Positions 33,593 to 60,299 of a stretch of 64,000 nt of DNA are shown here, in pieces. The notes beneath the pieces are model-generated. The model was not told the origin of the DNA and ran no database searches. It was given only the letters and a program-made list of their open reading frames with translations. A program made the position numbers and the translations under genes. Each line of letters begins with the position of its first letter. Position 1 is the first letter of the stretch. This stretch comes from Congeria kusceri (lineage: Eukaryota > Mollusca > Bivalvia > Myida > Dreissenidae), in the NCBI GenBank assembly GCA_027627225.1, contig CM051025.1:57165681-57229680 (forward strand), in the 5' to 3' direction.

Positions 33593-34225
33593 ATGGATAA
33601 TCTAAAAATTATTTCATACAATTGTCGGGGTCTCAATAACAATAAGAAGCGTAGAGATGTCTTTGACTTTTTAAAATCAAAAAAAGCACATATTTACTGC
33701 CTGCAAGACTGCCATTTTACTCAGGATATGGAAAGTCAAATTTATTCAGAATGGGATGGGGAATGTTATTTTAGCTTTGGATGTTCAAATTCAAGAGGTG
33801 TTTGTGTTTTGTTTAGTAAAAACATACAAATCAAAGTACATAAAACAGAAAATGACTCATTAGGAAATTATTTATTGCTAGACATGACATATATCACCAA
33901 CAGATTTACTTTATGCACTTTATATGGCCCTAATAAAGACATGCCCTCATTTTTTACAGATATATTTACAAAAATAGAACATTACGAGAACGATGAATTT
34001 GTTATTTGCGGAGACTTGAATCTTGTACTGGATGTAAACTTGGATTATTCAAATTATAAATCCTTTAATAATAATAAAATGGCTCGAGAAACACTAACGA
34101 CTATAATCATGGATAACAATTTAACCGATACTTTTAGATACCTAAATGGAAATGTCCAACAATACACATGGAGACGGTTAACACCGCTACAGCATGCTAG
34201 GCTCGATTTTTTTCCTAACTTCTAA
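33593..34225 (+). pseudogene. LINE endonuclease (APE-type) domain
   Basis: Starts MDNLKIISYNCRGLNN. APE motifs in order: SYNCRGLNN, a variant CLQDCHF (usually LQET), LYGPNKD, ICGDLNLVLD. The frame breaks at about 34200 in a T-run; the expected end of the domain (SYKSDHSIIVLE) continues in the next frame. Confidence 0.9.
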
Positions 34226-37200
34226 TAGCATTTGCTCTAAAATTAGAAAATCAACTATAGATTCAAGTTATAAATCAGATCACTCCATTATTGTATTAGA
34301 AATTAGTTTTGGAAATATAGAACATGGAAAAGGTCTATGGAAATTCAACAACTCACTACTAAATAATATTGACTACTTAAATTGCATTAATACCTTAATT
34401 GAAAATATTAAGAGGCAATACTGTATCCCAATTTATAATATAGAAAACATAGAAGCACTTGACAACAATGACATACAGTTTGTGATAAATGATCAACTAT
34501 TCCTAGAAACGTTACTTATGGCAATAAGAGGAAAAACAATTTCATTTTCATCATATTTAGCTAAGTTAAATAAAAACAATGAATCTAATTTAATCAAGAA
34601 AATAGTAGAACTTGAAAAATCAGTACATGAAACTAATACTGAGCAGCTGCAGGAATTACAAAATGAATTGGAAAAGTTAAATGAAAATAGACTTAACGGT
34701 TCACTTATTCGTTCAAGAGCTAAATGGCTAGAAGAAGGGGAGAAACCTTCAAAGTACTTCTGCTCTCTTGAATCAAACCATTATACAAACAAGTCAATAC
34801 CTTTTATTGAAACAGAAAATGGTACTAATTTGAATAATCAAAATGATATCTTAAATGAAGCAGTTTTATTTTATAAAACACTGTACAAAAGAAATGAAAA
34901 TAAAATTGGATATAACATAAATATTGATTTAGCTAATGCCAATTTACAGAAACGCAATAATGTTCAATCAGAAGCTTTAGAAGGACTACTTAGTATAAAT
35001 GAAGTTGCCCTTACACTTAAAAATATGAAAAACGACAGAAGTCCAGGCTCTGATGGTTTCACTGCAGAATTTTATAAGTGTTTTGGAACAGATTAGGCCA
35101 TTTCATAGTACGAAGTATAAATTATGCATTTAATAATAATTCATTGTCCACAACTCAAAAGCATGGAATAATAACTTGCATACCAAAAGACAATAAACCG
35201 CGCTGCTATTTGAAAAATTTAAGACCATTAACCTTATTAAATGTTGTATACAAACTGGCATCTGGGACTATAGCAAATAGATTAAAAACAGTACTTGATG
35301 TTTTAATCTCCCAAGACCAGACTGGTTTCATTAAAGGGCGATTTATTGGTGAAAACACTAGATTACTTTACGACATCTTGAAATATGCTGAAAATAATTT
35401 GCCTGGGTTACTTATGACAATAGATTTTGAAAAAGCGTTTGATACCTTATCTTTTAAGTTTATAGAAACTACTTTTAGATTTTTTAATTTTGGACCAATG
35501 TTCCAACAATAGATATCCATGTTTTTGCACAATACTATGGCGTCCATACAAATAAATGGATTTTTATCGAACACCTTTTGCATTGAGAGGGGCTGTCGTC
35601 AAGGGGACCCGATAAGCGCTTACATTTTTATTTTATGTGCGGAAATTCTAGCTATTAAAATCAGACAAAGCAAACAAATAAAGGGTATAACAATTAAAGA
35701 CATAGAATACAAAATATCACAATTTGCTGATGACACTTCTCTATTACTTGATGGATCTGAATCATCTCTTAATTGTACGTTAGACATGCTTCAGGAATTT
35801 TCAACATACTCTGGATTGAAAATAAACTATGATAAAACTAATTTAATTTGGATAGGCTCTATGAAATATAGTACAAGGTCAATAAAAACAAAATACAAAC
35901 TGACATGGGGAGCAACATCTTTTAAAGTTCTTGGGATAGTGTACGACGTAAATTTAGAAAACATAATCATGAACAATTTTGATAACAAAATCAACAGTAT
36001 AAAAAATTTAATAACACACTGGAATCGCAGAAATATCACACGGCTCGGAAAAATAACCATCGTAAAATCACTACTTCTCCCTCTGCTTACTCATTTATTT
36101 GTGTCACTACCAACACCAAGAATAGAAATTATGAAACAAATTAACAAACTTTTTTATGACTTCATATGGGCAGGTCCAAGCAAAATTAAAAGCACAGTAA
36201 TTGTTAAAGAATATAATAAAGGAGGTTTAAATATGGTAGATGTCTGTTCCTTTGAAAAACAAATGAAATTAACATGGCTTAAGAGACTTGTGACAGGAGA
36301 CGGAAATTGTTATACACTCGTTAAATCCTTCATTGATATAACAAAACTTTTTAATACTGGTAAAATTTTTGTTGAAAAACTTTGCATAAATTTAAAAAAT
36401 AAATTTTGGCAAGACGTCTTAAAAAGCTATATATTGTATATTGAAAAATTGCCTATAGTCAATAGTGAAGATATTCTCGATATGCCTTTGTTTTACAATG
36501 AAAATTTTAAAATTGGCAATAATTATATATATATAAAATGTCTGTATGAAAGAGGCATTCGATTTGTTAGAGACATATTGATAGATAGAGAACATTTTAT
36601 CTCCAAAGAATCTTTGGACTACCAAATTGGATCAAATGTGAATTTTCTACTGTACCAAGGTCTTATAAAAGTAATAAGTAAATTTATTAAGAATTTTGGA
36701 GACATTATTTACGTATGATAATAATATTCAAGGACCTGTATTAGCAACATACGTAAAGAAAATAGTAACAAGTCCTAAAGAAGAAAAACATGTTTATAAA
36801 ATATTTATTCAAAACAGTGAAATCCCAACTTGTCAAACAAAATGGAATTCAGAGTTCTTTGGTATTGACTGGAAAAGTGTATATCCACTTGTGTTTAATA
36901 TTAGTAAAGATAGTTATATCCAATGGCTCCAATGTAGAATAGTCCACAGAATCTTGGGAACAAAATCCAATATGTTTAATATGAAAATAGTTACTGATAA
37001 TCTTTGTACATTTTGTAAAAATGAAGTAGAAAATATAACACACTTGTTTTGGAACTGTGTACATTCTCAATATATTATTAATTTTGCTATTCACGTTGTA
37101 AATAGAAATAAACCAAACTCACCTATCCATCTAACATGTCAGGAAATGATACTTGGTATTACAGATTCAAAAATGAACAATCTAACTATTTTATGCCTAT

Positions 37201-37406
37201 AAATTAAACGATATATTTTTCATTGCCAGAGAAAAAACAGAAAGCCGTCTAATTTTGGATTAGTAAATAGCCTCAAGCACTCATTAGAAATATATAAAAC
37301 TACAAAAAAACTTGACGAAGGATTAAAAGATTGGTCACTAGTCAGCATGTTTACAGATATTGCTTATAATGAAATAGAAATAGTACTTAATAATAATAGT
37401 GATTGA
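34194..37406 (+). pseudogene. LINE linker, reverse transcriptase and C-terminus (broken)
   Basis: Reading passes through at least four further frames or stops: breaks near 35090, 35512, 36700, 37200 and 37258. Landmarks: RSPGSDGFTAEFYK, GIITCIPKDNKPRCYLKNLR, LLMTIDFEKAFDTL, GCRQGDPISAYIF, the catalytic QFADDT (about 35718-35738) and a C-terminal CTFCKNE..HLFWNC zinc-finger-like motif. With five or more disruptions it cannot encode a working protein, although the catalytic FADD remains. Confidence 0.92.
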
Positions 37407-38216: not shown

Positions 38217-39707
38217 CAATAACAACATCCGCGAATCAATGGTAGTCGCGAATTTAGGGGAGTTGACGATAACTGTTGCATACTTTTGGGGATAAAAAAT
38301 TTGCATAATTGTTTACATAAGGGGTTAAAATGAAGTTATAAACATATCCTCGACATATACTGTAGAACTGAGGCTAATTATGAACGTATTTTCTCATTGT
38401 ATGCCATAAACAGAATGCTGTATTCATTCACATAACGAAAGAACTATTTTGTTTAGCCTACACTTATATAAGCAGTACGCTCTATAAATAGCAATTGTGC
38501 AATGTTCTCATTCATAAATCTCATATGCAGAGTTGCCGTTCCATGTAGCCCATCGATTCTAGCGAGTTCATCACATTCCAGAAACAGTAGTGCCATTCTA
38601 AAAATAGCGTTCAGAGAATCATAAACCAAAAATTTTCAATAAATGGGGAATTTAGATTTATGAACTTATTGTTCATTGAATTAAAGTTGTGGTAACGATT
38701 CATTGACGATTATTTATAATTGCATTTTTCTATCAACTTCTCCAGTAGATGTTATTTAATCTGTAAAATGATGCTACATTTTCTATAGATAAAATGTTAT
38801 GAAAGAAGATTTGGAATACGTTGAATTGTTATTGGCGTATCATGAATACACAATTTGCAATACTAATTATACACAGGAACCCTTGATATATCATATTTCT
38901 ACTGATATAATTTAAAATCGTCATAGTCTAATCAATTTTTATGTTTGCGTTATCAAAAATAAAGTCTTAACATTTCAAAAATCGCTGAATGTTTTCTGAC
39001 TATTGCTTTCTATTGGGATACACAGTATAAATGCTTATTGGACTTCAAATCGAAGATATTAGATAGCTAACATGAATGGTATATTGCCGGTACTATAAAT
39101 AACTATAATATAGACACATCTGATACATGGTAATTTGAATTAATTCCCGAAATTATTGTCTTACATTGTTAATTTGTTAAATTGGCTTGACAAATTCAGA
39201 TAAAAATTATGTTAACCTAAATTATTTTGGTTTTTCATATATCACTGGTAGAAACATGGAGCTGTATGGTTAGTTTATTCACAGCATAGATATTAATGAT
39301 AATTTTATTTAATTTTTAAATTAATAAATTTATCTCAAATTAACTTTTGGGTCCCAGAAATGTTCGTATAGTGTGTGAAAAATTTGAGGTCCAATAAATC
39401 TCCTAATATTGGTGGGGACCAAACAAACTGGGGTCTGAGAAGTCACGTAACCGATCATCTTGGCCGTCTGTTTAAGTATTTTTAAATGACATCTATATAA
39501 TATTAATTTCAACGCCGATTGTCTTTTTTTAAAGACATTTCTTGTTTTTTTACTGGCTTGCAACATATAACAAAAAAGATATAAATAAAGACTGCTGGCG
39601 TATTGTAACAATACAACATTCTGTTATCAAAATAATTCAAATTTATCCCCCCCCCAAAAAAAAATCACAAGTTTAAACAACTGTTGTGTCAACAATTTGT
39701 ACCTGTC

Positions 39708-40092
39708 CAGTGTTTTTTTTTAGTGCCAATTTGGGGCCGAAATTCGGCCCCATTCCCCTGCTTAAATAGTATATATTTTTCCCCTATATTTACCTTTAAA
39801 TTCCCCACAGAATGTAAGCTTTAATTTTAAAAAAACTTGACCAAAATCGAACAAAAATTGACTAAGATAGAGGAATTTTCGTTAACAATCCCAGCAATTT
39901 TTTTTTATCAAATCAAGTTTGTGCATAATCTAAGTTATCATTCATAGCCAAACAATTGATTAATGTTTTATAACAAAGTAGAAATATAAAAATTTAATAA
40001 TGCTTTTCTACAAAAACAATTCCCCTTTTTCCGTGAAATTCCCTGTCTGAAGGGCCCCGCCACCTTTCCCCCAAAGGCGAAAAAAAACACTT
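39708..40092 (-). mobile_element. CAGTGTTTTTTTT TIR element, copy A
   Basis: 385 bp bounded by CAGTGTTTTTTTT and an A-rich complement (...AAAAAAACACTT). Contains GGGGCCGAAATTCGGCCCC and GGGCCCCGCCACCTTTCC. Two opposite-strand copies lie in NUP98 introns. The CAGTG ends suggest a hAT-like non-autonomous element; no clear 8-bp TSD could be confirmed. Confidence 0.75.
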
Positions 40093-41127
40093 CTGTCATT
40101 ATCCATTTCTGTTCTGGCAATACAACTATTTCTGTGAATCTGAATATCAGCTAATCAGAATTCAGAAAAAATCATGTCAAGGGTTAAACGAATGGTACTG
40201 TACAAAAGATCAGTCATATTACATTGTATTTGCTAAAATGTTAAATCTATTTTCTTTACATATTTATAGTAACTGATAATTTATGTTAACAATGCTTTTG
40301 AAAACAAACTTTTAGAAGATTTAGACGTTTAAAAGAGTTTATTTACCTTTAAAAACGACATTATTGAATGGAAACCAATGTTGACTGCAGCTAGCAGCAA
40401 AATTTTAACAAAGGGATGGAAGTTGAAAATAATTGTTTGCGCATGTGGGCGAAATTTATGTCTTTTGGAAATTCCGGGTAATATGGATATGGAGTATAAA
40501 ATTACGTCACTTCTCTACACCTATATATATATATGTGTTCGGTATTGTTTCTCATCATTTTGTATTTTGAATGAGTTTTCATGTTTTATATTTGTTGTCA
40601 ACTATCTATCTCATATCGTTCCATTAATTTCCAATATTTGCATCGTTCCAACATGAATTCATGTAAGTGAATTGTTGTTGTTGATCGATTTCGTGTCGAT
40701 TTGGCTATGGTCACTTTGTACTGGCTCAAACGCGGTTGTCGACTAGGTGCTATTCCACTATGTGATTTTTCACCTGATACTTTAATACTATTACAACTGA
40801 GTTTGAAAATGTGTTTAATAGTTTCCAATTAGATGTCGAATTAATAAGTCCTGTAACAAATTTAGTGTTACTTTTTATATAGGGCTAAATTCGCTGTAAC
40901 GTCTAATCACTAAGACCATTTTAATGGTGGAAAACTGAGTTTACTTTTCATAAATTCCCATTATCAGTCTTCGAAAATAACTTTCAAAAATAACTTGCCT
41001 ATCGGGCAAGTAATTTTATAATTTTTACTTGCCCAAAACCTTTTTTTAAACCCGAACTTTTTTTAAATAAAAAACTGCATATAACTTTGTTGACATATAC
41101 AAAAATGATGTGGTTACTGTGAAATCA

Positions 41128-43965: not shown

Positions 43966-46900
43966 GTCAGTGCATGTTCAAATAATAAAAATGAGGCGTG
44001 TCGTGGGAAAACAGGGCTTAATCATTAATGCATGTGCGTAAAGTGTCGTCCCGGATTAGTGTGTGCAATCTGCACAGGCTAATCTAGGACGGCACTTTCC
44101 GCCTACAGTGGATTTATGTTAAAAAGAGACTTCCTTGAAACAGAAAATACCATACAAGCGGAAAGTGCGGTACTGGATTAGCCTGTGCGGACCTCACAGG
44201 CTTATCCGGGATGACACTTTGCGCACATGCATTCAGCCTGGTTTTCCCACGACACGCCTCAAATACTGTTTTGGTTTCCCATAAATTCTTTACTTATTGT
44301 ATTGGGGAATTTTGGATCTTGATTTGTGAGGTCACTTATGTCACTTCCATTAGATAAGAACTCTGAGGTCACTGATGTCACTTCCATTAGATAAGAACAC
44401 AAAATAATAAGTATTTCATTACTGGGAATCCACTTAAGCAATAACAGGAAACTTGTGCATGTACCAAGTAGAAAAGCAGAACAGTGTTTTATTTAAATTA
44501 AACAATCTTTTTAATATCTACTGCAGCATCAACATTATAGTTATTTTCTTGTTGCATATCCTTAAGATCTATTTTCCATGATGATAATTGAGAATTCTAT
44601 GAGGCTTTTAGTTTATTTGTGTTTCATTATTGATATGAATCTTATTTATCAGCCAGTACCACTGGCTTTGGTTCCACTGGGTTTGGAGCATCTACGCCAG
44701 CAGCTGGAGGTTCCCTGTTTGGACAGAACAATGCTTCAGCCACGGGCGGTGGATTGTTTGGTGGAAACCAGAGTGCCTTTGGCACGCAGGCTTCAACCGG
44801 ATTTAGTAAGTATTGTACCTCATTACTATTATTATTATAATTGCTATTTTTGAGGTAACTATTGCACGGTTTAGGTTTGAGTGAAACACTCGGCCCAATT
44901 CAGTGTTCTGGCGATGCCGCAAAATTGTGATTTTGTCGCTTATTTTTCCCAAATGTCGCAGAGCAATATATCTAGTAGCGATTTTTGTAGCATACAAAAT
45001 TTCATGGGCTGAATCGTCAAATATGCGAAACAATTTGGAGACGAATATCAAATCTCTCAAAGTGCACCGAGTATGAATCAAACATCGATTAAGGTCTTCT
45101 TCCTGATTGGTTTAATTAAATATGGCACTACAATCTAAGCCAATCGTTAACACAATACGTTCCCAGGTTTAACTCCGTATCAAAGAGTATTCGTTTTGTT
45201 TTCCAAGATGGAGTCGTCTGCAGCATTATTAATAAAGTGCCATTGTCACGAATTTGACCATGTTGACGTAAAAACCTGAACGAAAATTCCAAATTCTTGG
45301 TTAAAAGAGCACAGTTGCCTTGCCTATAATGTTGAAAGAAATTTTATGATGTGTTCACTTTGTATTAAGCACGAAAAGAATAACGTTTTTCCACAGAAAA
45401 TAACTGACTTTAAGTTTATTAGTTATCAGTTATTTGTGTTGAACAGTTATAAAAAATAACAATAACTGTGTTTCTAATGTTAACTACTGCTGGCTAAAAG
45501 TCATACCAACCACTGACACAAATAGTCAAGGTAAATAAATATTGTTATTCATTTTATCATTTGTAGGAAATTGTACATGTAGGTGTATTTTGTTTGTGTC
45601 GCAAAAAAATTGGAAATGTCCCCAATTTTTCATGAGGTTTGAGACAAATGTCCCACCATTCGTGATACCTCGCCAGAACACTGCCAATTTTAACATGCGT
45701 ATTAATTAGCCACTGAAAATTAAAGTTACTGGTAAAGATTGTATATTACATGCACGCCCATTTTCATTGGTCAACTTACGACTAGATTTAATTTGAGAAC
45801 TAAGTTAAGGTTTGAGTCTAATTGACACTTTCAAAGTCATGGGGTAAGGAGCCACAGTTGGAAGAGAAAAAATGAAACAAATGTTAAGTGGAGTTTTCAC
45901 ACAAGAGTAAGTAATGTTTAAATGCTGGGCCCGGCTAGCTCAGTTGGTAGAGTGCTAAACTGTCAATCCGGGGATAGTGAGTTCGAACCCCAGCCCTGCC
46001 ACATAACTTGTGTGGGTATTGGTCATGAAATAATTTCTGAGGCCATTCTCCCCCTACCTCTGATTCAAGTAGGGCAGTTGTCAGTTACTGGCATAGGTAT
46101 GTGCACTTAGTACTGGTAAACCGCTAAGATCGGCTACGCTTGCCCAGGAAAAGTGTGAGTAGGTTAACTGACCGCCTTGATATGACTGAACTACTGTAAA
46201 AAACTGTGAAAAATCTACTTGCCCATGGACAACTTGCCAGAAAAAGCTTTCTTGCTTAAGAACCAGCCGCCAGCCGAAGTTACCGCTTCAAAGCTCATAT
46301 TGGCCGGTTCAAATGTTCAAAAATTCCATATAATCACTTCTAGGATGCAACCATTTCTGCACGCACGTGCATGTTTTTTTCCAAAACAAACAGCGTCTAC
46401 ACTGCAATATATGCACCATTTCACAGATTGCTCTTGACTGAATCCGCGTGTCAGTTATCGATTAAATCTAAATGTAGGCAGAGTCTTATTTACTACAACT
46501 AACCAGTTAGCCAATGAGAACGCGTAAAATTTCAGATATGCGAACAAGGTTGTTTCTGTAGAACGTTTATCACGCCCTCAATCCCATTTTAATTGGTAAT
46601 GGTGCAAATAAACAGTAACACGATTTTCGTTTGGTATGCTTTGTTATCGGCATGCTTTTTGCACCTCATAAGAAATAAGTTACTACAAATGAAAAGAAGT
46701 TCATATAATAATTGTTTTTGAGAATTGAAGTGTTTGAAGACTATGACATATGTTAACAATTTGAGTACGCTGATCGTGTATAGCATGTCACATTTTAATT
46801 CGAATGTTCATAGAGCTGTTCATTTATTAAACCAAAAACAAATCGACAAGCTATACCTTCTATTATTTCTGAATGAAAGAGCTGTTCAGAATCATCACTG

Positions 46901-49900
46901 AACACAGATTATCTTCAAAAACTAACGCTCCAATAACCTTTTGACAAATTGTTGGAATTAATGTTCTGGACGTAAGTGAAAGTTAAAGTAAAATGTCTGG
47001 GTCTTTTTGTTCCAGTTCATTGATTAATACACTAGCGAGTGAGCTTGCATTGTTCAGATATGCTAGCATCGATTGATGATGCAGTCGTCGTGTCAATCAT
47101 GTAACATGCTTTTTCGGCTGTAACCGCAGTTCGGCTACATGTCAAATACATTTGAAAAAATGACCCCATTGCTATGGGTGTTGTTAATGGCTTGCAGTAT
47201 CAGATAAAAAGCTACGGCATGACATCACACTCTTTCAGTACTTTTGAAAAAAGGCATAACATCTCGTGTTTTTCATGGACTTCTTTGTTTGAATCAGGAA
47301 TACTGAAAGGTAATCAGAACAATGTTGTGATGTTGTTTAGCCGGTTACATTTTTGTTTTGGCCTATTCAGTCAAAAGCTATTGAGCACCCTGTGCTTTAC
47401 GGTAAAATTACCAGCGTCGGACAAGTCGGGCATAGGATTTCCACACCCCAGTTTGAATTGCACCGAGTATTTGGAATAACAACATGTTAATGAAGAAAAA
47501 GAAAATCCTTTATGTGCAGCTAATATTGTGTATAATACATATGAGGCGCGTCGTTGGAAAACCGGACTTAATGCATGTGCGTAGTGTCGTCCCGGATTAG
47601 TGCAGTCCACACAGGCTAATCCGGGATGGCACTTTCCGCTTTTATGGTATTTTATGTTTCAAGGAAGTCTCTTCTAAACATAAATCCACTGTAGACGAAA
47701 AGTGCCGTCCTGGATTAGCCTGTGCAGACTGCACAGGCTAATCCGGGACGACACTTTATGCACATGCATTAAGTCCGGTTTTCCCACGACACGCCTCATA
47801 TGTGCCTTGCTGCCCTGCAGATTTTGGAGCGAACCCCAGTAGTACAGGAGGTCTGTTCGGACCAAAAACTACGGCCAGCACAGGCCTGTTTGGAACTCCT
47901 GCGGCCGCAAACTTGTCCAGTACCTTTGGATTTGGAAGCTCTGGTGAGTCCTTCTGATTTGACAATATGACTGGAGTGCTATATAGATGTTGTTTTCTGG
48001 CTCAGTTTTGTTTGTGGGGGGATTTCTTGTATACTAAATGAATCAACTTTAGAATCATGCGGTTGCTCATTGATAGCTATGAAAGTGATATTGGACTGCT
48101 GTTAAACATGCTATATCTGTGCATCCTAATACATTAAGACTCATCATAAAGATATTTTTAAAGAGCAGATACACTTAAATTTCTTTCAACTTTGAAAATA
48201 GGTTATTGTCAGTTTCATAAATGCATGACTAAAATTAGCATTGTATATGGAAGGGAAAAATAAATAGTAACACATATGCATAAAAAGTAATTCCAAAGCC
48301 TGAATTTCCATTTTAGGCCATTAATACTGCATTATTTATGTTATTTTCTTTAATTAATATGTTAATTTGTTGCATAATTTGAATGCATGGAGAACTGTTT
48401 AGTTGTTAAATACAGGTTACCTTTAGAAAGTAGTTATGTTGAAGAAATGTGACATATTTGGTATTCTATATGAGGCGTATCGTGGAAAACCCGGGTTTAA
48501 TGCATGTGCATAAAGTGTTGTCCCGGATCAGCCTGTGCAGTCCTCACACGCTAATCCAGGACAACACTTTCCAATTTTATGGTATTTTCTGTTTTAAGAA
48601 AGTCCCTTCTAAACATAAATCCAATAGGCGGACAGTGCCGTCCTGGATTAGCCTGTGCTGACTGCACTGGCTGATCCGGGGCGACACTTAACGCACATGT
48701 ATTAAGACCGGTTTTCCCACAACGAGCCTCATATGCATGTAATTCTTAACAGGTGGGTTTGGAACGGCCTCTACCGCCAGCTCAGGTACCCTGTTTGGTA
48801 CCAACACCAATCCAGCTAGCAGCCTGTTTGGAACATCAGGAGGTAAGAAGGGTTGTTTTTGTCCAATGTATTTATCGGAATCTCCCATTAAATGTCATAG
48901 CTACCAAATTGACAGCTACAGTTGATCTGGCAATGGGTTCATTGTTTTCTTAAGTTTCTCTAAGCAACAAAAGTTTCCTCTTAGTGAAAAATTTCGTCAG
49001 TTTTAAAGTGTACGTCATGAAAAATAATTGATAATTTTATGTCAGTTTCGGGCTGAAATATTTTTCCCCAGCTCTGGAGTACTGTTAAAAGTTTTCAGCC
49101 AAAATTTCAAATCTCCAGAAAAGATTGACAATGTACCTGTTTTTAACTTTAAATTTACCTGTTCTTAACAGTAAATACAAGTGAAAAAATCAATGAAACA
49201 GGTTGTTGGAGAGTTTAGTCATTTTAACTTACTGTTTTTACATCCTATTTGGAAAGTTTTGACGAAATTTGCAATTTGGCTGAAAACGATGCTAATTTTC
49301 CCAATTTTGGTCGGTAAAGATACCATACCTTAAGTAGTGAGAAAAAACGCTGCATATTCTTGTTTGTTATTTTTTATGATATTTATAAATATTTTTCTTA
49401 ACACTGAATCACAACAAATCTTATTCTTTGTCTAGGGTTTGGGGGTCAGGCCCTGTCAGGAACGACTGTCAAGTTTAACCCGCAAGCCGCCACTGACACG
49501 ATGGTGAAGAATGGAACGACGCAGACCATCCAAACGAGACTGCAGTGTATCACCTCCATGAAGGAGTATGAGAATAAGAGCCTTGAGGTGAGGCTTGCTG
49601 CACCATAATACAATGGCTTTTAAAACTGGGTCGGCACTGAGAAATAAATTTAAGTAGCTAAAATGTCATTTTGAAATATTTTCCCCAGGAAATCATGAAA
49701 TATACATTTTTATTTAATGCTAAGTAGTGAAATATAGAAAAATATCAGTGAGATATATCCCTATATCACTCACAGTTAGGGACTACTTTTTGGGGTTTAA
49801 TATGGTATATGTAATGGACTGTCATTGATGCCGGGCTCAAAACTGTGAAATGACGTCATTATTTTGACGTCGTGACGTTATGATTCCCGTGATATTTTCC

Positions 49901-52900
49901 AATAAAATTTAAAACAAAGGTTAATGAAGCATTAAATAAAAAGAAAATTTGTTTGTTTTCGGTGTAATTACGCGTTGTATCATCAACGAAAAGGGAGACA
50001 ATTTACATATTTTCACTCGCGCAAGTGCTCGTGAAAATATTAATTGTCTCCCGTTCGGGTGATGATATCACGCGTTATCAAACCGAAAACAAACAAATAT
50101 CCTCTATATATTTAAAAAAAGTTATAAAAAATTTAATAGGCAGTAGCTATTTGGCCCTTGGTAACGTTAATATAGCTAAAGGTCCAAATCATGTATGTGG
50201 TTATATAAGCAAACTATTGATACTTGGTTTTCTGCTTTACATTATCAACTTATTTTGTTAACTTGAATTTGTCATTGAAGTTTCTGCTATTGCCAATCAT
50301 ATTTTGCAAATTAATTAAAGTGGTTTATGTAATCTTTGCACTGACTCAGATATCCCCTGTGAAACTGCTAACCTTGTTTACTCCCGGTTAAATTAAGTTA
50401 GCCTCTTTGCCTGTATATTGGGCCATTTAAGAGCTAAACTGCTTTAATACCCTAAATGAATACAATTTCAACAACAGTGAGACTTTTATAAGTAACTTTA
50501 AGGTCTTTCCTACTTAATAAAGGCCAGATTAGGTAGAGATTAGCCATTCACTTATTTACTGACCAATTCTAGGAAGGCACCGTAGCAACCATGAATTTGT
50601 CAGATGTTTCCTATCAGTTGGTTCAGTCTTCATTTTGATAAGAAAATACAAACAGTTCTTAAAATTTGGATATAATTCATTAGAAGCATTATATATAAGA
50701 CTACCATACACCAGCATACTGTTTGAAAATAAATGTTTACAAAATTCTTGGCGTATGCACGAAGTGTCTAGCAATTTTTAGGAATTTCTTTTAAACATCT
50801 TAATTTTCTGTGACAGAATCTTAAATTTGCAATTTTTTAAACCAAAACCAATATTTATGTGATAGAATTGTCACAATGCAGATAACTAGTTTTATAAGAA
50901 ATATTCATTAATTCCACTTATCTGGGGATGGCCAAATCTATAGGAATGGCTAAAACTATAGGAAAGAAGGGTAATTGCTGAAAAGACAAATTCTGTAAGT
51001 GCTGAAAAAACAACTACTGACGACTTTTGTTCTGCCAGAACATGCATTAGTATTGCTTCATATGGTTACCGTCTTATTCATCGTCTTCGTGTCTTACAGT
51101 GTTGTCATTTTTTGTCATTGTTTTTTTTCACCTTTGGGGAAAAGGTGGCGGGGCCCTTCAGATGGTTAAATTTACGGCAAAAGGGGAATTTTTGTTTTAG
51201 AAAAGCATTATTACATGTTTATATTCTACTTTTTTATAAAACATAAATCAATTGTTTTGCTACAAACGATAACTTTAGATTATGCATTAAGTTGTTTTGA
51301 TGAAAAATTGCTGTTTATTTACGAAAATTCCTGTATGTTAGTCAATTTTAGTCAGATTTTGGTCTTCTTTTTTTTTTTTAATGAAGCTTACATTATGAGG
51401 GAAATTTCAAGGTAAATATTGGGGGAAAATATATACTTTTTTAGCAGGGGAATGGGGCCAAATTTCGGCCCCAAATTGGCCATTAAAAAATACACTGTCA
51501 TCTTCAGGAGCTGAGAGCGGAGGATTACCTTGCCAACCGGAAAGGGAAGTCAGCAACAACAACCGGATTCGGATTTGCCTCCCCTGTCACATCAACCCAG
51601 CAGTCTACAGGCTTCTCGTTTACAGCCACCAAACCAGCTGCCTTTGGAACAACAAGTACGATATTGGCATAGAATTCTTTCAGGGCTATATCATAAATTT
51701 TCCAAGCCGACTGCTACTTGTGTCAGGGCTTTGTCTGAAAAAATAATTTAATGCTGATAATTTGGATTTTATCATGGAAAAATCATGGAATATTCAAAAA
51801 TTGTCATGGAAAGTTAACAAGTATCATTGAATATGCCTGTAAGTGCATAAAAATGATCAAATCCATTTAAATATAATCAAACAAAAAATCAGGATCAAGA
51901 GCATAATGATGGACAGATATAAAGTGCAGCACTACAAGCAATTTTAATGTATTATTCAGTGTGCCTATGGGCCTGTATAAATAATTTTATTACATGGATG
52001 AAATCAAATGTGGATTTCTGTGAACTATTTTGACTTGAGTATGTTCAGATTGTATCATGAACAACTAAGCTATGTCATGGAAAAATAATGGAATTTTGGT
52101 TTCAGCAGTTGTATGAACGTGTTGCCTAAGTTACTTTGATTTTGGCTTCAACCTTTGTTTATAACAATGCTGTGCATTACTAAAATTGAGCATGATTTCA
52201 TCATATTAAGTGTGTGAGCCAGAGAATGCACTGAATTATTGCTCACAGAGTTATTGAACATCTATATTGACTTCTGTATCTAGATGCTTGAAATCTGTCG
52301 ATGTTAAGTACTGGTAGTTTTGATTGTTATAAGTACTTGTCGAGAAGTTTAATTGACAACTATTTAAGCATATAATGCGTGCATTGTCAGACTTTCAACT
52401 TCATCTTTATCATGTTTGTTTCTCATTATAATCAACATTATTTCATGCCAAAAAGAAACAACCAAGACAAAAAAAACAGTGTTGTTTTTTTTTGCCTGAA
52501 GGGGAAAGGTGGCGGGGCCCTTCAGATAAGGAATTTTACGGCAAAAGGGGAATTTTTTATTAGATGTTTATATTCTACTTGGTTATAAAACATTAATCAA
52601 TTGCTTTGCTTAGATTATGCACTTACTTGGTTTGATGAACAATTGCTGGGATTGTTAACAAAAATGCCTCTATCGTAGTCAATTTTTGTCCGATTTTGGT
52701 CAGATTATTTTTCAAAATAAAGCTTACTTTCTGAGGGGAATTTCAAGGCAAATATAGGGGCAAAATACATACTTTTTTAGCAGGGGATTGGGGCCGAATT
52801 TCAGCCCCAAATTGGCGTTAAAATAAAACACTGACAACTGTCTCACATTTTCAGCTGGATTTGGGACAACTACATCGACAGGAACAGGTGGATTATTCGG

Positions 52901-55900
52901 GCAGCCTTCCCAGACGGGGACAGCTGCAGGGGGTCTGTTTGGACAGAGCAAGCCCGCAGGGTTCTTCAACACCGCCACCACCACGGCCGCCCAGAGCGGG
53001 TTTGGAGGCTTCGGGACCAGTACCAGCACTGGGACGGGAGGGCTGTTTGGAAACACTGCACAAAAGGTACTTGAGATTTTAAGGTTGTAATCATAATTTG
53101 AAATAGTATTTTGTAGAGACATATTAACAATCATGGTCGTATTGTGATCATAGAGTTATTTTCTTCTAGCCAGTGTTAACACCTTTGTCTTTTGTTTTGT
53201 TATACTCAGATTTTAGCCTGTTAATTTACTCTTGTCAGTCAGTTTTGCGTTGCTAGTTTACTATCACTAATCACTTTGTATCAAGACTGTATAAAGCTGC
53301 CACTATAAGTTTCTTATTCCATATTATGCAGCCCCTGTTTGGCGCTACTACCACCCAGTCCACTGGCCTGTTTGGAACAGGAAGCACTGGGTTTGGCCAG
53401 CCTACAGCCACCACGGGGTTCGGGGGCTTTGGAGCATCCAACCCCGCTTCGGTGAGTTTCTAGCATCTTTTTGGCAAGGCATTTTGTTATTTTACTGAGA
53501 AGTTTTCTTTCCCCCCCCCAAAATAGAAAAACTTAAATTATTGTGAACAACAACTGCTGTTTGTTCTGAAGGACTGTTTACCCATGGATTTGGTAGCAGA
53601 TGTGATTAGGTCCAAAAAAAATTGTTGGTTTTGTCTTATATCTAAAAAAAAATCGGGCTTAAGTAGATTTTACCTTTTTATCTATCACCAACTATGCTTG
53701 CTACAACACTTGGATACTTACGCAGTTGTTGCATATGACCATCCCCAATCCACCCATTTTACCCAACCTCACATTGACCTTGACCTAATTTGGACTAATA
53801 ATAATTCAAAAGTGCCATTTCTTGGTTAACTAGATTTTACAGTTTCGTCTAGCACCAACAACTCTTACTACAGCACTTGGATACTTACACAGTTGTTGCT
53901 TATGACCATTCCCAATTCATCCATATCACCAAACCTTACTTTGACCTTGACCTAATAATCCAAATGGGCTGTCCAGCACTAACGGGGGCATGTGTCTTGT
54001 GATTCCGCTTTTTTTCTTCACGGAATATTCACCACACAGTTTAGGTATATTGGACTGCATGCAAAATGTTAAGACGCCTCCCATCAAAGACACTGTACCT
54101 TAGCTATAAATAAGGTCATAGAAAAAGAAATTTCACAATTTCAGTTTGAAAATTGCTTTTTCCAAATATGAATTACTAAAAAGCCGCATATAAGCGAAAA
54201 CTGCTCTTTTGACCGAAAGTTAGAAAAATTTAATGATCGATAGGCAAAAAAACTTAAGTGTTGGTGGAAACAATTATGGGGGGGGGGTAAGCGGAAACAA
54301 ACACATTTTTTTTTCGTCATGAAAGTATGAGACATGGCTAGGTTGGCGCGTAAAAATAAAAATCAGTGGACAAAATTATCAACAAAAACGTGTCGTCCCA
54401 GACATGTGCCTTGTTTTGATATTTTTGAGAAATTTTTGTTTGAAAGAAATGTTTTTTACTGTGGAGACAGTAAAATATGCAACTTTAATTATCATTGAAG
54501 TTAAATAAATGTATGTATTGATTGAATATCTAATGTTCCTTTGCCTATAAGGCCTGGGAGCTCATCTGTGTATTGAAGTATACCTAAACTCTCCATCTTG
54601 TTTAATGCATTTAGCCCTGGCTCGTTAATGTCATGTGAATTTTTAATGGGTGAATAAATCCCAAAGATTTTGAATAATAAACGTTTCTTTTTTTTTAGGG
54701 AGGTCTCTTTGGCAATAAGCCAGCAGCATTTGGAACGCAGACGACAGCCTCGCCAGGTTTTGGGTTTGGTTCGGGCTCCATGACCGGATCTAACCTGTTC
54801 TCCAAGCCCTTCTCGACCCCTTCCACTGGGTTCGGGGGATTCAATGCCGCAACCACACAGGCCACTAGTTTTGGAGCAAGTAGGTCTTAATTTGGAAACA
54901 ATTATTTATTCCATTTCATTCATATTACTGTGAACAGTTTCTTGCTGTTCAAAACCTTGCCTCAAATTGGAAGTATTTAGTATTCCTACTCATTCCAGTA
55001 TTTTCCAATCATTTTGTTAAACAAAAACTATAATGAAACCAACGTAAACCTAATTTCATGATTTGCAGAATTGTATAATTTCACACACAATTGTGCTTAA
55101 TCATGTCAAATGTCTCTATTTCCAGCTCAGCCATTTGGTGCAGCCAAGCCGACAGGATTTGGTGTATTAGCCTCCAGCAGTACGGCTCCCAGCTTTAACT
55201 TTGGGTCCACATTAAACACGGGGACCAGTCTATTTGGAACAAATAATGCATTAAACAAGCCGGCGTTTGGTGGTCTTGGTACCACAGGATCTGCAGGTTT
55301 GTCGTCGAATAATTTTAATAAGCTTACATAAGGCATATACATGTACAGTAGAACCTGTCTAAACTAAACAGGGTCGGGATCGGGAAGATCGTTCGGTTTT
55401 CAGAGGTGTTCGGTTTACCCAGTTTTTTTTAAAATTATATGTCATTTTCCGTTAAAAATGTACACTCTATTTTATATGTTTATTCTAGTAGATAATAAGA
55501 CAACATGTTAATGTTTATACTTATTATTGTTTATTATTTTTGTTATTTGCAAATACAAATGTGTATTTGTACATAAAACGATACTGAATTTATCAATCAA
55601 ACAAGTTCATGTATTCAACATATAACTCATTTACATCTGTTTAAAGAAATTACCAAATTCAATTGTTGACTGCTTTGATTAGTTTAAAAATATTTATTTT
55701 AGCTCAATTGCATCGCAAGCCTCAGACTTTGTTGTGAAACATTAAAAATTTTACACTGTATGTTCATTTCAACATAAAACACGACAGACTACTGTACAAT
55801 CAGTTGAATTCACGGGGTACAAATTTTGCGCACTTGCGACCTCGGACATATTTGCGCGGTCTTTAATTTGTGCAACTACGATCTTGAAAAAAACCGATTA

Positions 55901-58900
55901 AAAAACAGCAAACAAACAAGAATTGATTTTAACACAATATATATGTGTCAATTATGCAATAAAACGACGAACCAGACAGAACGCCAATAAAGAGTCCTAT
56001 TGTGACAGCTTGTTTGTTGCAATAAACACGTATATTAGTACCGGATTAGGCTCTTAATTGACAACAATGGTTGCAGAGTTAGGCGAGACAATAGATAGAG
56101 AATACACGGTTGGTGCCGGAATGGAGAAAGTTAATCCGGTGAGGCTTAGAAAATGAAAATAGGGCGAACTTTAGCAAGCCCTTTTTTGTTTTCGGGCCGA
56201 ACCGGATAAACTTTCTCCTTCCTGGCACCTACCGTGTATTCTATTTATCCTGATTTCCATTCAATTAAATTCAAAAACACCAAACACTAAAGTGTTAAAT
56301 TGAAAAAAAATATTCTAGACGGGCCTCGACCTAATAACTCGCTTGTTATGAATGCGTACTACCCGGAAAAAAATAGTTCTCTATTTCTTAATTACCTTTT
56401 TCAAAAAGCAAAAGTAAAATATTAATAAATCTTATTTGCTGATGTCAGTACGACACGAAAATGACGTAGTGAATGGGCTTTTGTTTTAAACCAGATTATA
56501 TTGGTGTTTTAAAGAGTTAAATTACGTCGCACCAACTACGTCATTCATTTTGAGTTGTAAGTCTACACAATGTAGTCAAACCAGAATGCGAGTGTTTTGC
56601 AGTTTAAAATACATGAAATCGGAATAAATATTTATATAAATAAGTGTTTCTGTGTTTTGGATGGATTGTATTATGCAATAGCATTCAGATAAAAAGTGTA
56701 TGGAATATTTTCCTCGAATGGAAACGGTGAGATCGATCCCTTTTCAATTTTCTACGATTTACTCGGATAGTATTAGTTGTGGGTGGAGGACAGTGTAACT
56801 GAAAGAGAAATAAATAATAAAATGTTTAGTTATACGATAAAATTTTGATAACTTTTTTCATTTCTTTTGATCGGAAATTAATATAAAAGGTTATTTCTTT
56901 GATGAATATGCTCTGTTGGTTGACCAAAGAAAGTAAATCCACAAAGAATGACCCGCTTGCATCAGATTCAAGTGTGTTGAAATGGAATGGAACTGGAAGT
57001 TGTTGTTAACCAGTCAAATCGAATGTGAGGACAAACAACTCATTTGTTGTTTAACTCTGTTAAACTAGACAACACAAAGTTTGTATCGATGAAAAACTCT
57101 GGTAAGTAGACTTTATGCTGTGTCATTCTCGACAATGTTGTTATCCGGTGCGTAGGAATACCTATTGACGTTTTATCACAGTCACATGATCTACTGCTGG
57201 ATAGCAACAAGTTTATACGGTCACCGCTTTATTAGGTCACTGTTTGGGTTAGTAGCAGGATAAATACAATATATCACGTTATGTCAAACTTATACCATGT
57301 TTTTAATTACGTGCCTTTTAAATGCTCTTCACGGCTCCACATTGCTGGAGCTAATTTTTTACTCCAAAGTTCAACTTGTGAAAAGTAACTCTTTGTTTTC
57401 ATTTTACTTGTTGTATTATGAGTGTTAAATATCATGCCTTTGCGTAACTATGTTATAGAAATACATTTGTGTTATTATGCATTATGAAATTTTTATGCTT
57501 AAGTTAAGATTTCAATATACTCTGTGCTACAAAGTGTTTTTTAAGCAGAACAAAGGATTAACATGACATAATGTACACATGCTGTTTAATTGTAAAATAT
57601 AATTCGTGTTAACATGACGTGAACAGTAACATTCGAAAGGCGTTTCGGATGTCTGATTGATTATACACGATTTGAAATTAATTACAAGGAATAATATTTA
57701 ATCTCTATATTTTTATATACAAATGGAATATTTTGGTATAACACATTAAGGATGTTTACAACAATGAAATTGGCTAGATAATAACTTTTATGTTTTTAGG
57801 TCACGATAAAAGGCTTTAGTGTTAAATATACATTGACCCTGCGAGTCGCGATATAGCGGACCTGCAGTGTATGACCGCATTTAAATGTACGAAAACACAC
57901 ACGATTGAATTTAAAAGAAAAATATGCATTCATTAATCAGAATGAAAGAAAAAAATTAAAAAACGTTCCTTAAAAACATTCGCATCGTAGCATACAGGCC
58001 TATCTGCATATATTTACGAACGATTACCGACGTTTATTTGAACGAATGGGTAAGCTCCCAAGGTGCTGCTACACTATGAAACGGTAAATATTTGCGGTGG
58101 TCTTAAATTCACGCAATGGCGGGAGCGCGAAAATAAGACCACCGCGAAAATTCCACAGTAATCTGTTTTTCACAAGTTGACTATTGTCACATGCACCAAC
58201 AAGCTGATCGCTATTTGCACCACTGCCACATTATTTCCATGGCAAGTATGCCCTATATGTGTAATTGTGTTGCCAATTATTGGGTTCATGCTTCCACGGT
58301 ATGCGAAGTGACTGGATACACTGTTCCGTTTATTCAGGTGTTTTAAGGTTGAATGAGATAAAGTTTGTGATAAAATCGTTCATGCGGTCAGGACAGGGTC
58401 AGTTTATTAAGTTTTTTATATATATATAATAAGGAGAAAAAAAATCCGGACCGACACAGCCGTTCAGTTTTCACAGGGATTCAGTTTTCACAGGGTTTGG
58501 TTTGCTCGTCTATTGATTCATATTTTGCATTTTTGTTAAGTAATTCATTATCCTATTATAAACCTAATTTGTCTTAACCTAAATTTGATGATGTTTCTTT
58601 TTATTGTAATATGTACTTCATAAATAATTAGCTGGGTCCTTTGATATGTCCTTCACCACAGATGGAAACATCTAGATTTTAAAAATTATGAAGTGTGTGT
58701 GGTTGGGTGCAGCTTGTTTTTTAATTTCTTCAAATTCGGTCATGAACACATATGAGGCGCGTCGTTGAAAAACCGGTCTAAATGCATGTGCGTAAAGTGT
58801 TGTCCCGGATTAGCCTGTGCAGTCCCCACAGGCTAATCCGGGATGGCACTTTCTGCTTTTATGGTAATTTCTGTTTCAAGGAAGTATCTTCTAAACATAA

Positions 58901-60299
58901 ATTCACTGTAGGCGGGAAGTGCCGTCCTGGATTAGCCTGTGCGGACTGCACAGGCTAATCCGGGACGACACTTTACGCACATGCATTAAGTCCGGTTTCC
59001 CATGACGCGCCTCATATTTTGTTGTTGATTCTCTTATTTTATGACCGATGTCATTTAACAAAATAAAAATGTTTCAGGATTTGGTGGATTTGGAACAACA
59101 GCAAACCTCGGAACTGCTCCAGCTCTTGGAGGGTAAGTCTGGAGTTGCTGTTTGCTTGAAATAGAATATTGTCCTATTCTAACAGTTACATGTTCTTTCA
59201 CTTGTCTTGTCAATGAGCATTGATAGCAAATTTTGCTTCATCATGGACTTAAATTATAAGAAAAAGTTATTTAGGGCATGTCATGGGAAAATTTGGCTTA
59301 ATGCACATGCGTCAAGTGTGGTCCCGGATTAGCTTGTGCAGTCCGCACTTTCTGCTTATGGTATTTTCTGTTTGGAGGTAGTCTCTTCTAACCATAAGTC
59401 CACTGTAGGCGGAAAGTGTCATCCCGGATTTGTCTGTGTGAACTGCACAGGCTAATGGGGGATGACACTTTTCGCAAATGAATAATCCATAATTTCAGAG
59501 ACACGCCGCATTTCCATTTGTTTCAGATTTCACATGTTAGTTAGTTTGCTGTCGAAATTGGTTTGAAAATGGTTTTGTGAAACAATACTTTATCCATCAG
59601 TGTTTTATCTGTTAGTATGCTATAGAGTCAACTTGATGCAATTTAATCAGCAGCACAAAACATTTCTAACAAGTTTATTTACAAAATTCATTTACCAAAT
59701 ACAGAGAAATGCCCAATTGCAATGGAAGTGAAATTGCTATCGTCTGTATTCTAGATTTTCAATATATGAGGCGCGTCGTGGGAAAACCGGACTTAATGGA
59801 TGTGCGTAAAGTGTTGTTCCGAATTAGCCTGTGCAGTCTGCACAGGCTAATCTGGGACTGCACATTCCACTTTTATGGTATTTTCTGTTTCAAGGAAGTC
59901 TCTTCTATCCATAAATCCACTTCAGGCGGAAAGTGCTGTCCTGGATCAACCTGTGCGGACTACACAGGCTGATCCGGGACGACACTTTACGCACATGCAT
60001 TAAGACCGGTTTTCCCACGAGACGCCACATATCTCTGTCATTACAGGCAAGTGAACGCCACTACTACCAACCAGGCAGTCCAGTTACAGCAGACGCTGCT
60101 AGCGTTGACCCACTCCCCGTACGGAGACTCAAAACTTTTCTCCAACATGAAGGAGGCCTTGATCAAGCGAGAGGACATTTTGAAGCCGACCAATCCAGCG
60201 GCGCAAAAAGCAGTCTTGGCCAATCAGCACAAAGTCAGTCCCAGACCGATGTCGAAGATAAAACCCAAGGCGTTGACTGGAAACCTGAATGGGAGCAAG
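43917..60299 (+). CDS. NUP98: Nucleoporin NUP98, N-terminal 569 codons (joined exons)
   Basis: Join of 43917-43965, 44653-44805, 47821-47943, 48753-48842, 49436-49587, 51508-51655, 52855-53066, 53332-53451, 54699-54879, 55126-55296, 59078-59132 and 60047-60299; 1707 nt in one frame with GT/AG at every junction. The protein starts MYNKPTGFGSPF and is rich in FG, GLFG (eight exact) and SLFG repeats. Residues about 147-205 are the GLEBS motif (KFNPQAATDTMVKNG...QCITSMKEYENKSLE, then LRAEDYLANRKG) that binds RAE1/Gle2. The last exon carries LLALTHSPYGDSKLF and LKPTNPAAQKA, the conserved segment ahead of the autoproteolytic domain. Established role: FG nucleoporin of the nuclear pore, mRNA export and gating. 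The autoproteolytic (HFS) domain and any fused NUP96 part lie beyond 64000. Confidence 0.97.
43992..44261. mobile_element. Palindromic GAGGCG MITE in NUP98 intron 1
   Basis: 270-bp full-length copy in forward orientation, starting 26 bp after the exon 1 donor. Confidence 0.95.
44323..44398 (+). repeat. 37-bp tandem duplication
   Basis: Two near-identical units GAGGTCACTNATGTCACTTC...TAAGAAC in NUP98 intron 1. Confidence 0.9.
44653..44805 (+). CDS. NUP98: NUP98 exon 2
   Basis: Residues 17-67 with STTGFGSTGFG, SLFGQNN, GGLFGGNQ. Acceptor TTATCAG, donor A|GTAAGT, phase 1/1. Confidence 0.95.
45927..46215 (+). mobile_element. tRNA-derived SINE
   Basis: The head has a strong A box (TAGCTCAGTTGGTAGAG) and B box (GAGTTCGAACC) with tRNA spacing, but the anticodon arm is degenerate, so it is not a functional tRNA. 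A non-tRNA body follows, ending near GACCGCCTTGATATGACTG and a short A-rich tail. Lies in NUP98 intron 2, sense orientation. Confidence 0.8.
47541..47801. mobile_element. Palindromic GAGGCG MITE abutting NUP98 exon 3 acceptor
   Basis: About 260-bp copy in reverse orientation (core ATGGTATTTTATGTTTCAAG). Its right end is 20 bp before exon 3. A 4-bp gap in the left arm (GCGTAGTGTCG instead of GCGTAAAGTGTCG) marks it as imperfect. Confidence 0.95.
47821..47943 (+). CDS. NUP98: NUP98 exon 3
   Basis: Residues 68-108 with two GLFG repeats. The acceptor CTTGCTGCCCTGCAG lies only 20 bp after the end of a MITE copy; donor GTGAGT. Confidence 0.96.
48469..48734. mobile_element. Palindromic GAGGCG MITE abutting NUP98 exon 4 acceptor
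   Basis: 266-bp reverse-orientation copy with TATATGAGG/CCTCATATG ends; it finishes 18 bp before exon 4. Confidence 0.95.
48753..48842 (+). CDS. NUP98: NUP98 exon 4
   Basis: Residues 109-138 with TLFGTN and SLFGTSG. Acceptor AATTCTTAACAG, 18 bp after a MITE end; donor GTAAGA, phase 1/1. Confidence 0.95.
49436..49587 (+). CDS. NUP98: NUP98 exon 5 (GLEBS, first part)
   Basis: Residues 139-189, GFGGQALSGTTVKFNP to MKEYENKSLE. Phase 1 in, 0 out; acceptor TTTGTCTAG, donor GTGAGG. Confidence 0.97.
51097..51497 (+). mobile_element. CAGTGTT TIR element, copy B, abutting NUP98 exon 6 acceptor
   Basis: Starts CAGTGTTGTCATTTTTT, carries AAGGTGGCGGGGCCCTTCAG and TTTCGGCCCCAAATTGGC, ends AAAAAATACACTG. 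The gap to exon 6 is 10 bp. Confidence 0.85.
51508..51655 (+). CDS. NUP98: NUP98 exon 6 (GLEBS, second part)
   Basis: Residues 190-238, ELRAEDYLANRKGKS then FG-type spacers. The acceptor TCATCTTCAG is only 10 bp from the end of a TIR element; donor A|GTACGA. Confidence 0.95.
52477..52833 (+). mobile_element. CAGTGTT TIR element, copy C, abutting NUP98 exon 7 acceptor
   Basis: Starts CAGTGTTGTTTTTTTTTGCC, shares the GGTGGCGGGGCCCTTCAG and GGGGCCGAATTTCAGCCCC segments with copies A and B, ends AAAACACTG. The gap to exon 7 is 21 bp. Confidence 0.87.
52855..53066 (+). CDS. NUP98: NUP98 exon 7
   Basis: Residues 239-309 with three GLFG repeats. The acceptor CTCACATTTTCAG lies 21 bp after the end of a TIR element; donor AAAAG|GTACTT. 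Confidence 0.96.
53332..53451 (+). CDS. NUP98: NUP98 exon 8
   Basis: Residues 310-349, PLFGATT and TGLFGTG repeats; phase 0/0, acceptor ATTATGCAG, donor TCG|GTGAGT. Confidence 0.96.
53660..53965 (+). repeat. Two degenerate tandem units in NUP98 intron 8
   Basis: Blocks at about 53660-53790 and 53826-53965 share TAGATTTTAC, ACTTGGATACTTAC, CAGTTGTTGC and TTGACCTTGACCTAAT in order. Confidence 0.8.
54699..54879 (+). CDS. NUP98: NUP98 exon 9
   Basis: Residues 350-409 with GGLFGNKPAAFG and NLFSKPF. The acceptor follows a T10 run; donor GCAA|GTAGGT. Confidence 0.96.
55126..55296 (+). CDS. NUP98: NUP98 exon 10
   Basis: Residues 410-466, PFGAAKPTGFG, SFNFGS and SLFGTNN; acceptor CTATTTCCAG, donor GCAG|GTTTGT (weak). 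Confidence 0.94.
55340..56090. other. NUP98 intron 10, left part; repeat fragments only
   Basis: Contains CAGTAGAACCTGTCTAAAC and GTTCGGTTT motifs related to a segment near 58440-58500 (TTCAGTTTTCACAGGG), suggesting one older element was split by later insertions. No exon seen. Confidence 0.4.
56100..57266 (-). mobile_element. 1.15-kb dispersed element, copy 2
   Basis: Reverse complement of 10922-9770, but without the TA/GA microsatellites. Begins with the GAATACAC hairpin (56100-56241) and ends GTTAGTAGCAGGATAAATA. Inserted in NUP98 intron 10. Confidence 0.88.
57267..58750. other. NUP98 intron 10, right part; no exon seen
   Basis: AT-rich. A block near 58080-58160 with GCGGTGGTCTTAAATTCACG and AAGACCACCGCGAAAAT forms an imperfect inverted repeat. 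No coding support. Confidence 0.4.
58751..59017. mobile_element. Palindromic GAGGCG MITE upstream of NUP98 exon 11
   Basis: 267-bp reverse-orientation copy, ending 61 bp before exon 11. Confidence 0.95.
59078..59132 (+). CDS. NUP98: NUP98 exon 11 (55 bp)
   Basis: Residues 467-484, FGGFGTTANLGTAPALG; the phase shift 1 to 2 fits the flanking exons exactly. A MITE ends 61 bp upstream. Confidence 0.93.
59272..59513. mobile_element. Palindromic GAGGCG MITE, diverged
   Basis: Older copy with an eroded left arm and part of the first nested hairpin missing; reverse orientation, NUP98 intron 11. Confidence 0.85.
59764..60032. mobile_element. Palindromic GAGGCG MITE abutting NUP98 exon 12 acceptor
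   Basis: 269-bp reverse-orientation copy; only CTCTGTCATTACAG (14 bp) separates its right end from exon 12. Confidence 0.95.
60047..60299 (+). CDS. NUP98: NUP98 exon 12 (last in window)
   Basis: Residues 485-569: QVNATTTNQAVQLQQ, LTHSPYGDSKLF, ILKPTNPAAQKAV and SPRPMSKIKPKAL. The acceptor CTCTGTCATTACAG begins directly after a MITE; donor AGCAAG|GTTGGT, phase 0. Confidence 0.96.

What the first reader, a model, noticed from the sequence alone, without database searches (positions are those of the whole stretch)
47541..60046. Transposable-element ends sit 10-21 bp from five NUP98 splice acceptors
Seen directly: exons 3, 4 and 12 begin 20, 18 and 14 bp after a palindromic MITE; exons 6 and 7 begin 10 and 21 bp after a CAGTGTT TIR element; exon 11 begins 61 bp after another MITE. 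That is five (loosely six) of eleven internal acceptors. With eight element ends spread over 16 kb, each has about a 1-2% chance of landing so near an acceptor, so coincidence is unlikely. Branch points usually lie 18-40 nt upstream, hence they must lie inside the elements here. Either these families insert preferentially near acceptors or they were kept because they supply branch point/pyrimidine tract.
Basis: partly seen in the sequence, partly recalled or inferred. Interest (0 to 1): 0.9.

Follow-up and report, generated by a model that had tools for sequence, protein, structure and literature searches.

The report
Mobile DNA beside NUP98 splice sites
Five short mobile DNA elements really do end within 10-22 bases of splice sites in this animal's NUP98 gene, far more often than chance placing would give, but one of the two element families shows no clear preference for splice sites across the genome, so this is a local oddity rather than a proven general rule.

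Summary
Exons 2-12 join into one open NUP98 frame, and five of eleven acceptors lie 10-22 bases behind an element end (three palindromic MITEs, two CAGTGTT elements); exon 11 lies about 60 behind another MITE. Random placing inside the introns gives 0.13 such cases for 7 elements; 0 of 60,000 trials reached five. Further down the gene: 5 of 16, expected 0.24.

The general explanation is not borne out. In the 1.55-Gb genome, MITE ends followed by an acceptor-like motif at 13-37 bases (120, about 93 distinct) are hardly commoner than at 208-232 (94, about 84): 1.11, 0.82-1.51. But such cases exist: 17 of 75 distinct near matches read as exon starts, DYNC2H1, UBE2K and LARGE1 among them.

Most likely these are ordinary insertions tolerated beside acceptors, because the MITE end carries a branch-point-like CTCAT (-23, -22 at exons 3, 4) or because the element folds out as a hairpin. 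Why NUP98 holds so many is unexplained. Mammals show depletion there (PMC3088655). The CAGTGTT family was not tested genome-wide.

The parts
47542..47798 (.). palindromic MITE core upstream of exon 3 (TA on both sides); 22 bases to the exon
   Evidence: RNA fold -200.1 kcal/mol, z -23.6
47821..47943 (+). NUP98 exon 3
   Evidence: frame-keeping join
48471..48731 (.). palindromic MITE core upstream of exon 4 (TA on both sides); 21 bases to the exon
   Evidence: RNA fold -159.3 kcal/mol, z -13.3
48753..48842 (+). NUP98 exon 4
51099..51497 (.). CAGTGTT inverted-repeat element upstream of exon 6; 10 bases to the exon
   Evidence: no notable RNA structure, z 0.07
51508..51655 (+). NUP98 exon 6
52476..52833 (.). 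CAGTGTT inverted-repeat element upstream of exon 7; 21 bases to the exon
52855..53066 (+). NUP98 exon 7
58753..59014 (.). palindromic MITE core upstream of exon 11 (TA on both sides); 63 bases to the exon
59078..59132 (+). NUP98 exon 11
59275..59510 (.). degraded MITE copy in the intron before exon 12, 536 bases from the exon
59767..60029 (.). palindromic MITE core upstream of exon 12 (right end reads GCCACA; TA on both sides); 17 bases to the exon
60047..60299 (+). NUP98 exon 12
43991..44261 (.). MITE copy about 390 bases upstream of exon 2, not close to an acceptor
39704..40094 (.). third CAGTGTT-type copy (reversed), flanked by GACAG on both sides

Best explanation
Two unrelated families of small non-autonomous DNA transposons (a palindromic MITE with 2-bp, mostly TA, duplications at ATAT-like targets, and a CAGTGTT element with 5-bp duplications) inserted into existing NUP98 introns. 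The MITE has at most a weak preference for acceptors. Copies that landed 10-22 bases before an exon survived because splicing still works: the MITE end brings CTCAT, a branch-point-like motif at the right distance, or the palindrome folds out of the transcript so that the old branch point stays close; at exon 6 the CAGTGTT element must itself supply the signals upstream of the last 10 bases, or a very distant branch point is used. The excess in the 5' half of NUP98 is a local outlier, part chance and part unexplained. Shown: positions, target sites, predicted folds, recurrence in other genes, no strong genome-wide excess for the MITE. Inferred: tolerance, and which branch point is used.
For: Near and far acceptor-motif counts alike. 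17 of 75 distinct near matches read as exon starts; 3 of the 5 peptides searched against solved structures match from residue 1 or 2 of the exon: DYNC2H1, UBE2K, LARGE1. A MITE match lies in 19 of the 20 near loci checked. Of the 7 clear cases with gaps up to 23 among the first 60 read, 6 carry CTCAT, which then falls at -19 to -27 (the place follows from the gap, as the pattern demands the end). Hairpins z -23.6 and -13.3. The six copies near acceptors sit 525-3454 bases from the donor in introns of 809-3781 bases, so they did not make the introns.
Against: The NUP98 cluster is hard to get by chance even at three-fold enrichment (Poisson 9e-4). The T that makes CTCAT is no commoner in clear exon cases (11 of 13) than in the others (32 of 41; Fisher P 1.0), so there is no sign that the motif was selected. 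CTCAT and fold-out exclude each other if the stem forms fully. Fold-out needs an old branch point: the empty sites of exons 4 and 12 and of L083 show no match of score 4 or more, exon 3 has CTAAT at -39, L067 has two, L078 one at -57. In 39 MITE copies not chosen by place, four clear exons face the element with the acceptor within 100 bases and one with the donor, which hints at some acceptor bias.
Confidence: 0.5

Rival explanations
1. Insertion targeting: the transposases prefer the AT-rich, perhaps nucleosome-poor stretch just before exons, so elements pile up before acceptors.
Against: Nucleosome positions are unknown here.
Confidence: 0.2
2. Exaptation: the copies were kept by selection because they supply the branch point or polypyrimidine tract of these exons.
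For: CTCAT is the only yUnAy match of score 4 or more at -15 to -54 at exons 3 and 4; similar placing in other genes; at exon 6 only 10 bases lie between element and exon.
Against: T/A ratio at the motif does not differ between clear exon cases and others; exon 12's copy lacks the motif; exon 6 has no good match; the 10-22 bases next to each exon, hence most of the tract, lie outside the elements.
Confidence: 0.17
3. Pure coincidence, found because many windows were scanned.
Against: Poisson P 5e-6 for this gene at its own element density, and two different families contribute.
Confidence: 0.12
4. Introner-like origin: the elements created the introns.
For: Introner families often show features of DNA transposons, inverted repeats and short duplications (PMC9860276, one passage seen).
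Against: The elements fill only part of each intron and do not reach either splice site.
Confidence: 0.01

Closest known systems
Intronic transposable elements near exons in mammals, 'underrepresentation zones' (PMC3088655; passages seen, the abstract among them)
   Same: Elements in introns close to exons; the effect on splicing is the issue.
   Different: In human and mouse, elements are depleted near exons and, below 20 bp, sit near donors rather than acceptors (DNA transposons were left out of the donor/acceptor analysis); here five sit 10-22 bases before acceptors, and genome-wide the MITE shows no depletion at 13-37 against 208-232 bases.
Introners (PMC9860276; one passage seen)
   Same: Non-autonomous elements with inverted repeats and short duplications associated with introns.
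   Different: Introners are whole introns; these elements lie inside larger introns and do not contain the splice sites.
Tc1/mariner-like MITEs with TA duplications (label recalled, from no call)
   Same: Palindromic, about 260 bp, mostly TA duplication, many copies.
   Different: The inverted repeat TGAGGCG...CGCCTCA was not compared with any library of named families; five of 39 copies have TT or AA duplications.
hAT-like elements with 5-bp duplications (label recalled, from no call)
   Same: Inverted repeat CAGTGTT and 5-bp duplications in two copies.
   Different: No transposase was looked for; the two NUP98 copies have no exact duplication left.

Membership tests
MITE (non-autonomous DNA transposon) | terminal inverted repeats and short length | tested here: met
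   near-full-length palindromes of about 260 bp
MITE (non-autonomous DNA transposon) | target-site duplication | tested here: met
   identical 2-bp flanks in 36 of 39 copies from elsewhere in the genome; 31 of these TA, 4 TT, 1 AA by my count of the listing
MITE (non-autonomous DNA transposon) | high copy number | tested here: met
   37 copies in 314 kb; 6404 first-look candidates genome-wide, 40 scored
Tc1/mariner superfamily | autonomous relative with a transposase and matching ends | not tested
   no autonomous partner was sought
hAT-like CAGTGTT element | matching inverted repeats and fixed-length duplication | tested here: inconclusive
   5-bp duplications GACAG (39704 copy) and GGTTA (copy in L003); the two NUP98 copies show TCTTA/TCATC and AAAAA/ACAAC; the fifth copy is truncated
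Introner | element equals the intron and carries both splice sites | tested here: not met
   the element starts 142-3454 bases from the donor in all seven cases
Exapted branch point | spliceosome uses an adenosine inside the element | not testable with these tools
   needs lariat sequencing; only motif matches available

The most novel reading that the evidence does not exclude
Palindromic MITEs of this genome are exempt from the usual ban on insertions before acceptors, because each copy brings a portable branch point in its end (CTCAT, followed by 15-25 bases of host tract) or folds itself out of the transcript; in NUP98 several acceptors now depend on such element-borne branch points.
Probability: 0.3. 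Interest if true: 0.65.

Novelty: new member of a known kind. Interest (0 to 1): 0.4.

Why it matters
If a very common transposon can land 15-25 bases before an acceptor without breaking splicing, then the mammalian picture, in which such places are nearly closed to insertions, is not general, and the reason (a portable branch point or a self-folding insert) could be tested in one gene. If not, the case still shows how a striking local cluster can exist without a clear genome-wide preference.

Tried and rejected
A home-made exon finder trained on NUP98 exons ran away under self-training: it called 447 and 480 exons on the two strands of the reversed sequence against 534 and 487 in the true one, and recovered only 8 of 26 NUP98 exons exactly, so none of its output is used. 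CTCAT as a selected feature: no T/A difference. A genome-wide test of the CAGTGTT family: not answered. The reverse-complement control at the far distance: not answered, so the far count is set against the near control only. Donor-facing counts at the far distance: not asked. Reading the far matches for true exons: not possible, no letters left. Papers: apart from the two in which passages were seen, only search listings were seen; no listed title or abstract start reports this case, but the library lacks most subscription journals.

Full report
What is there. The window is part of a 1.55-Gb eukaryotic genome in 1071 contigs, probably a bivalve mollusc (my recall of this type of MITE; no call names the organism). 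Exons 2-12 of a NUP98 gene, read from AG to GT, give one open frame of 552 codons with the Gle2-binding motif and similarity to Nup98 of solved structures. Down to 98825 in window numbering (L001-L004) I placed 17 further acceptors by reading frames and splice signals; these rest on my reading. Exon 1 was not located.

Elements. A palindromic MITE with core TGAGGCG...CGCCTCA: 36 of 39 copies from elsewhere in the genome have identical 2-bp flanks, 31 of them TA, in an A-TA-T-like target (A at -3 in 38 of 39, T at +3 in 35 of 39). A CAGTGTT element with 5-bp duplications in two copies. In 314 kb around the gene BLAST finds 37 and 5 copies.

Distances and chance. Five of the seven copies between exons 2 and 12 end 10-22 bases before an exon. 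Placing them at random inside the same introns gives 0.13 on average within 22 bases and never five in 60,000 trials. With 16 copies and 27 introns: 5 observed within 25 bases, 0.24 expected, never reached in 100,000 trials. The other nine copies have no acceptor nearer than 161 bases; one starts 15 bases behind a donor. In the rest of the 314 kb three more MITEs face an acceptor: the last NUP96 exon at 42 bases and a cadherin-like exon at 67 (counted on the sequence), and a carboxypeptidase-like exon at 57; these gene names are my reading of the translations. Other exons of that stretch were found only by reading codon-scored frames, so some may be missed.

Is it general? I asked for every genome match to an exact MITE end (CGCCWCATAT) followed by an acceptor-like motif (YYYYNCAGG) with 13-37 bases from the end of that word to the exon: 120 matches, 100 listed. 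I dropped 25 listed rows as copies of another row (23 identical, 2 differing by one or two letters), leaving 75; for the 20 unlisted I assume about 18 distinct, hence about 93. The same motif reversed and complemented, which cannot be an acceptor facing the element: 83, 67 distinct by identity. The acceptor motif at 208-232 bases: 94, about 84 after dropping ten rows as copies, two by their letters and eight by equal length in neighbouring or related places. Near against far: 1.11 (0.82-1.51) distinct, 1.28 (0.97-1.69, P 0.09) all rows; near against control 1.39, P 0.048; far against the near control 1.25, P 0.19. Donor-like motif facing the element: 65, about 51 after dropping 12 rows of a 13-row array and two copies; its control: 60, about 34 after dropping 25 of 26 same-length rows and one more; no letters are printed for most of these rows, so the dropping is by place and length. 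So there is no strong peak of MITE ends at acceptors and no hole either. None of 28 NUP98 acceptors fits the motif, so it samples only a small part of acceptors, and a two- to three-fold true enrichment is not excluded.

True exons among the near matches. I read all 75 distinct listed matches (60, 15): 17 start a clear coding exon (L065, L067, L073, L075, L078, L079, L082, L083, L095, L096, L104, L120, L121, L125, L129, L132, L139), 6 are uncertain (L076, L080, L085, L087, L088, L118), 52 are not. This is a reading by eye with a codon score. Five peptides were searched against solved structures: DYNC2H1 1.4e-12, UBE2K 1.6e-12, LARGE1 3.9e-11, no hit for L073 and L096. Ten peptides against Pfam: three matched (histone deacetylase 3.6e-4, ubiquitin-conjugating enzyme 3.4e-5, dystroglycan glycosyltransferase 1.2e-3), all under the curated cut-offs, as expected for pieces; seven did not. 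A MITE match lies in 19 of the first 20 loci, not in L080.

A sample not chosen by place. The 39 best MITE copies after the window's own have four clear exons facing them with the acceptor within 100 bases (L061 38, L056 63, L035 64, L059 98; L026 at 78 uncertain) and one with the donor (L062), again by reading. None of these seven is within 25 bases.

How it may work. At exons 3 and 4 the only yUnAy match of score 4 or more at -15 to -54 is CTCAT of the MITE end, at -23 and -22; exon 7 has CTGAC at -21 across the element end; exons 6 and 12 have none; 20 of the 22 acceptors without a near element have one too. CTCAT lies at -19 to -27 in six of seven short-gap cases in other genes, which follows from the gap once the end reads CTCAT. 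The MITE transcript folds into one long hairpin (-200.1 kcal/mol, z -23.6; -159.3, z -13.3) with CTCAT in the stem; then an older branch point upstream could come near the acceptor. Joining the flanks gives CTAAT at -39 for exon 3 but no match of that score for exons 4 and 12; of three other genes, L067 has two, L078 one at -57, L083 none. The CAGTGTT element does not fold notably (z 0.07) and ends 10 bases from exon 6. Which branch point is used cannot be told from sequence.

Judgement. Observation confirmed; a general MITE preference not shown; occurrence beside acceptors of other genes shown; the NUP98 cluster itself not explained. Work on mammals (PMC3088655, passages seen) reports depletion near exons and a donor bias below 20 bp, so the placing here is unusual.

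Noticed in passing
window 45926-46002: tRNA-like sequence (GGCCCGGCTAGCTCAGTTGGTAGAG... GTTCGAACCCCAGCCCTGCCAC), perhaps the head of a tRNA-derived SINE in the intron before exon 3 (seen; label recalled).
   Followed up: no
window 33593-37202: Frames that read like a LINE endonuclease and reverse transcriptase, broken into several ORFs (my reading).
   Followed up: no
window 49936-50109: Another palindrome with 76-base arms, 79% complementary, in the intron before exon 6.
   Followed up: no
L003 5097-5364: A MITE starting 15 bases behind the donor of a NUP98/96 exon, the mirror of the acceptor cases.
   Followed up: partly
G000:C12:45.68-45.90 Mb (L132): Six rows with the same MITE end 18 bases before the same motif; in the one copy read, a coding-looking exon follows: probably a duplicated gene that took its MITE along.
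   Followed up: partly
G000:C2:51000803-51002041: 13 matches spaced by about 76 bases or multiples: probably a tandem repeat containing the MITE end.
   Followed up: no
window 17147-17503: Short tandem repeat open in several frames on both strands.
   Followed up: no
314-kb stretch around the window: 23 exact MITE ends here, against roughly 21,000-26,000 genome-wide if the control count is turned into a number of ends (hand estimate): this neighbourhood looks several times richer than average.
   Followed up: partly
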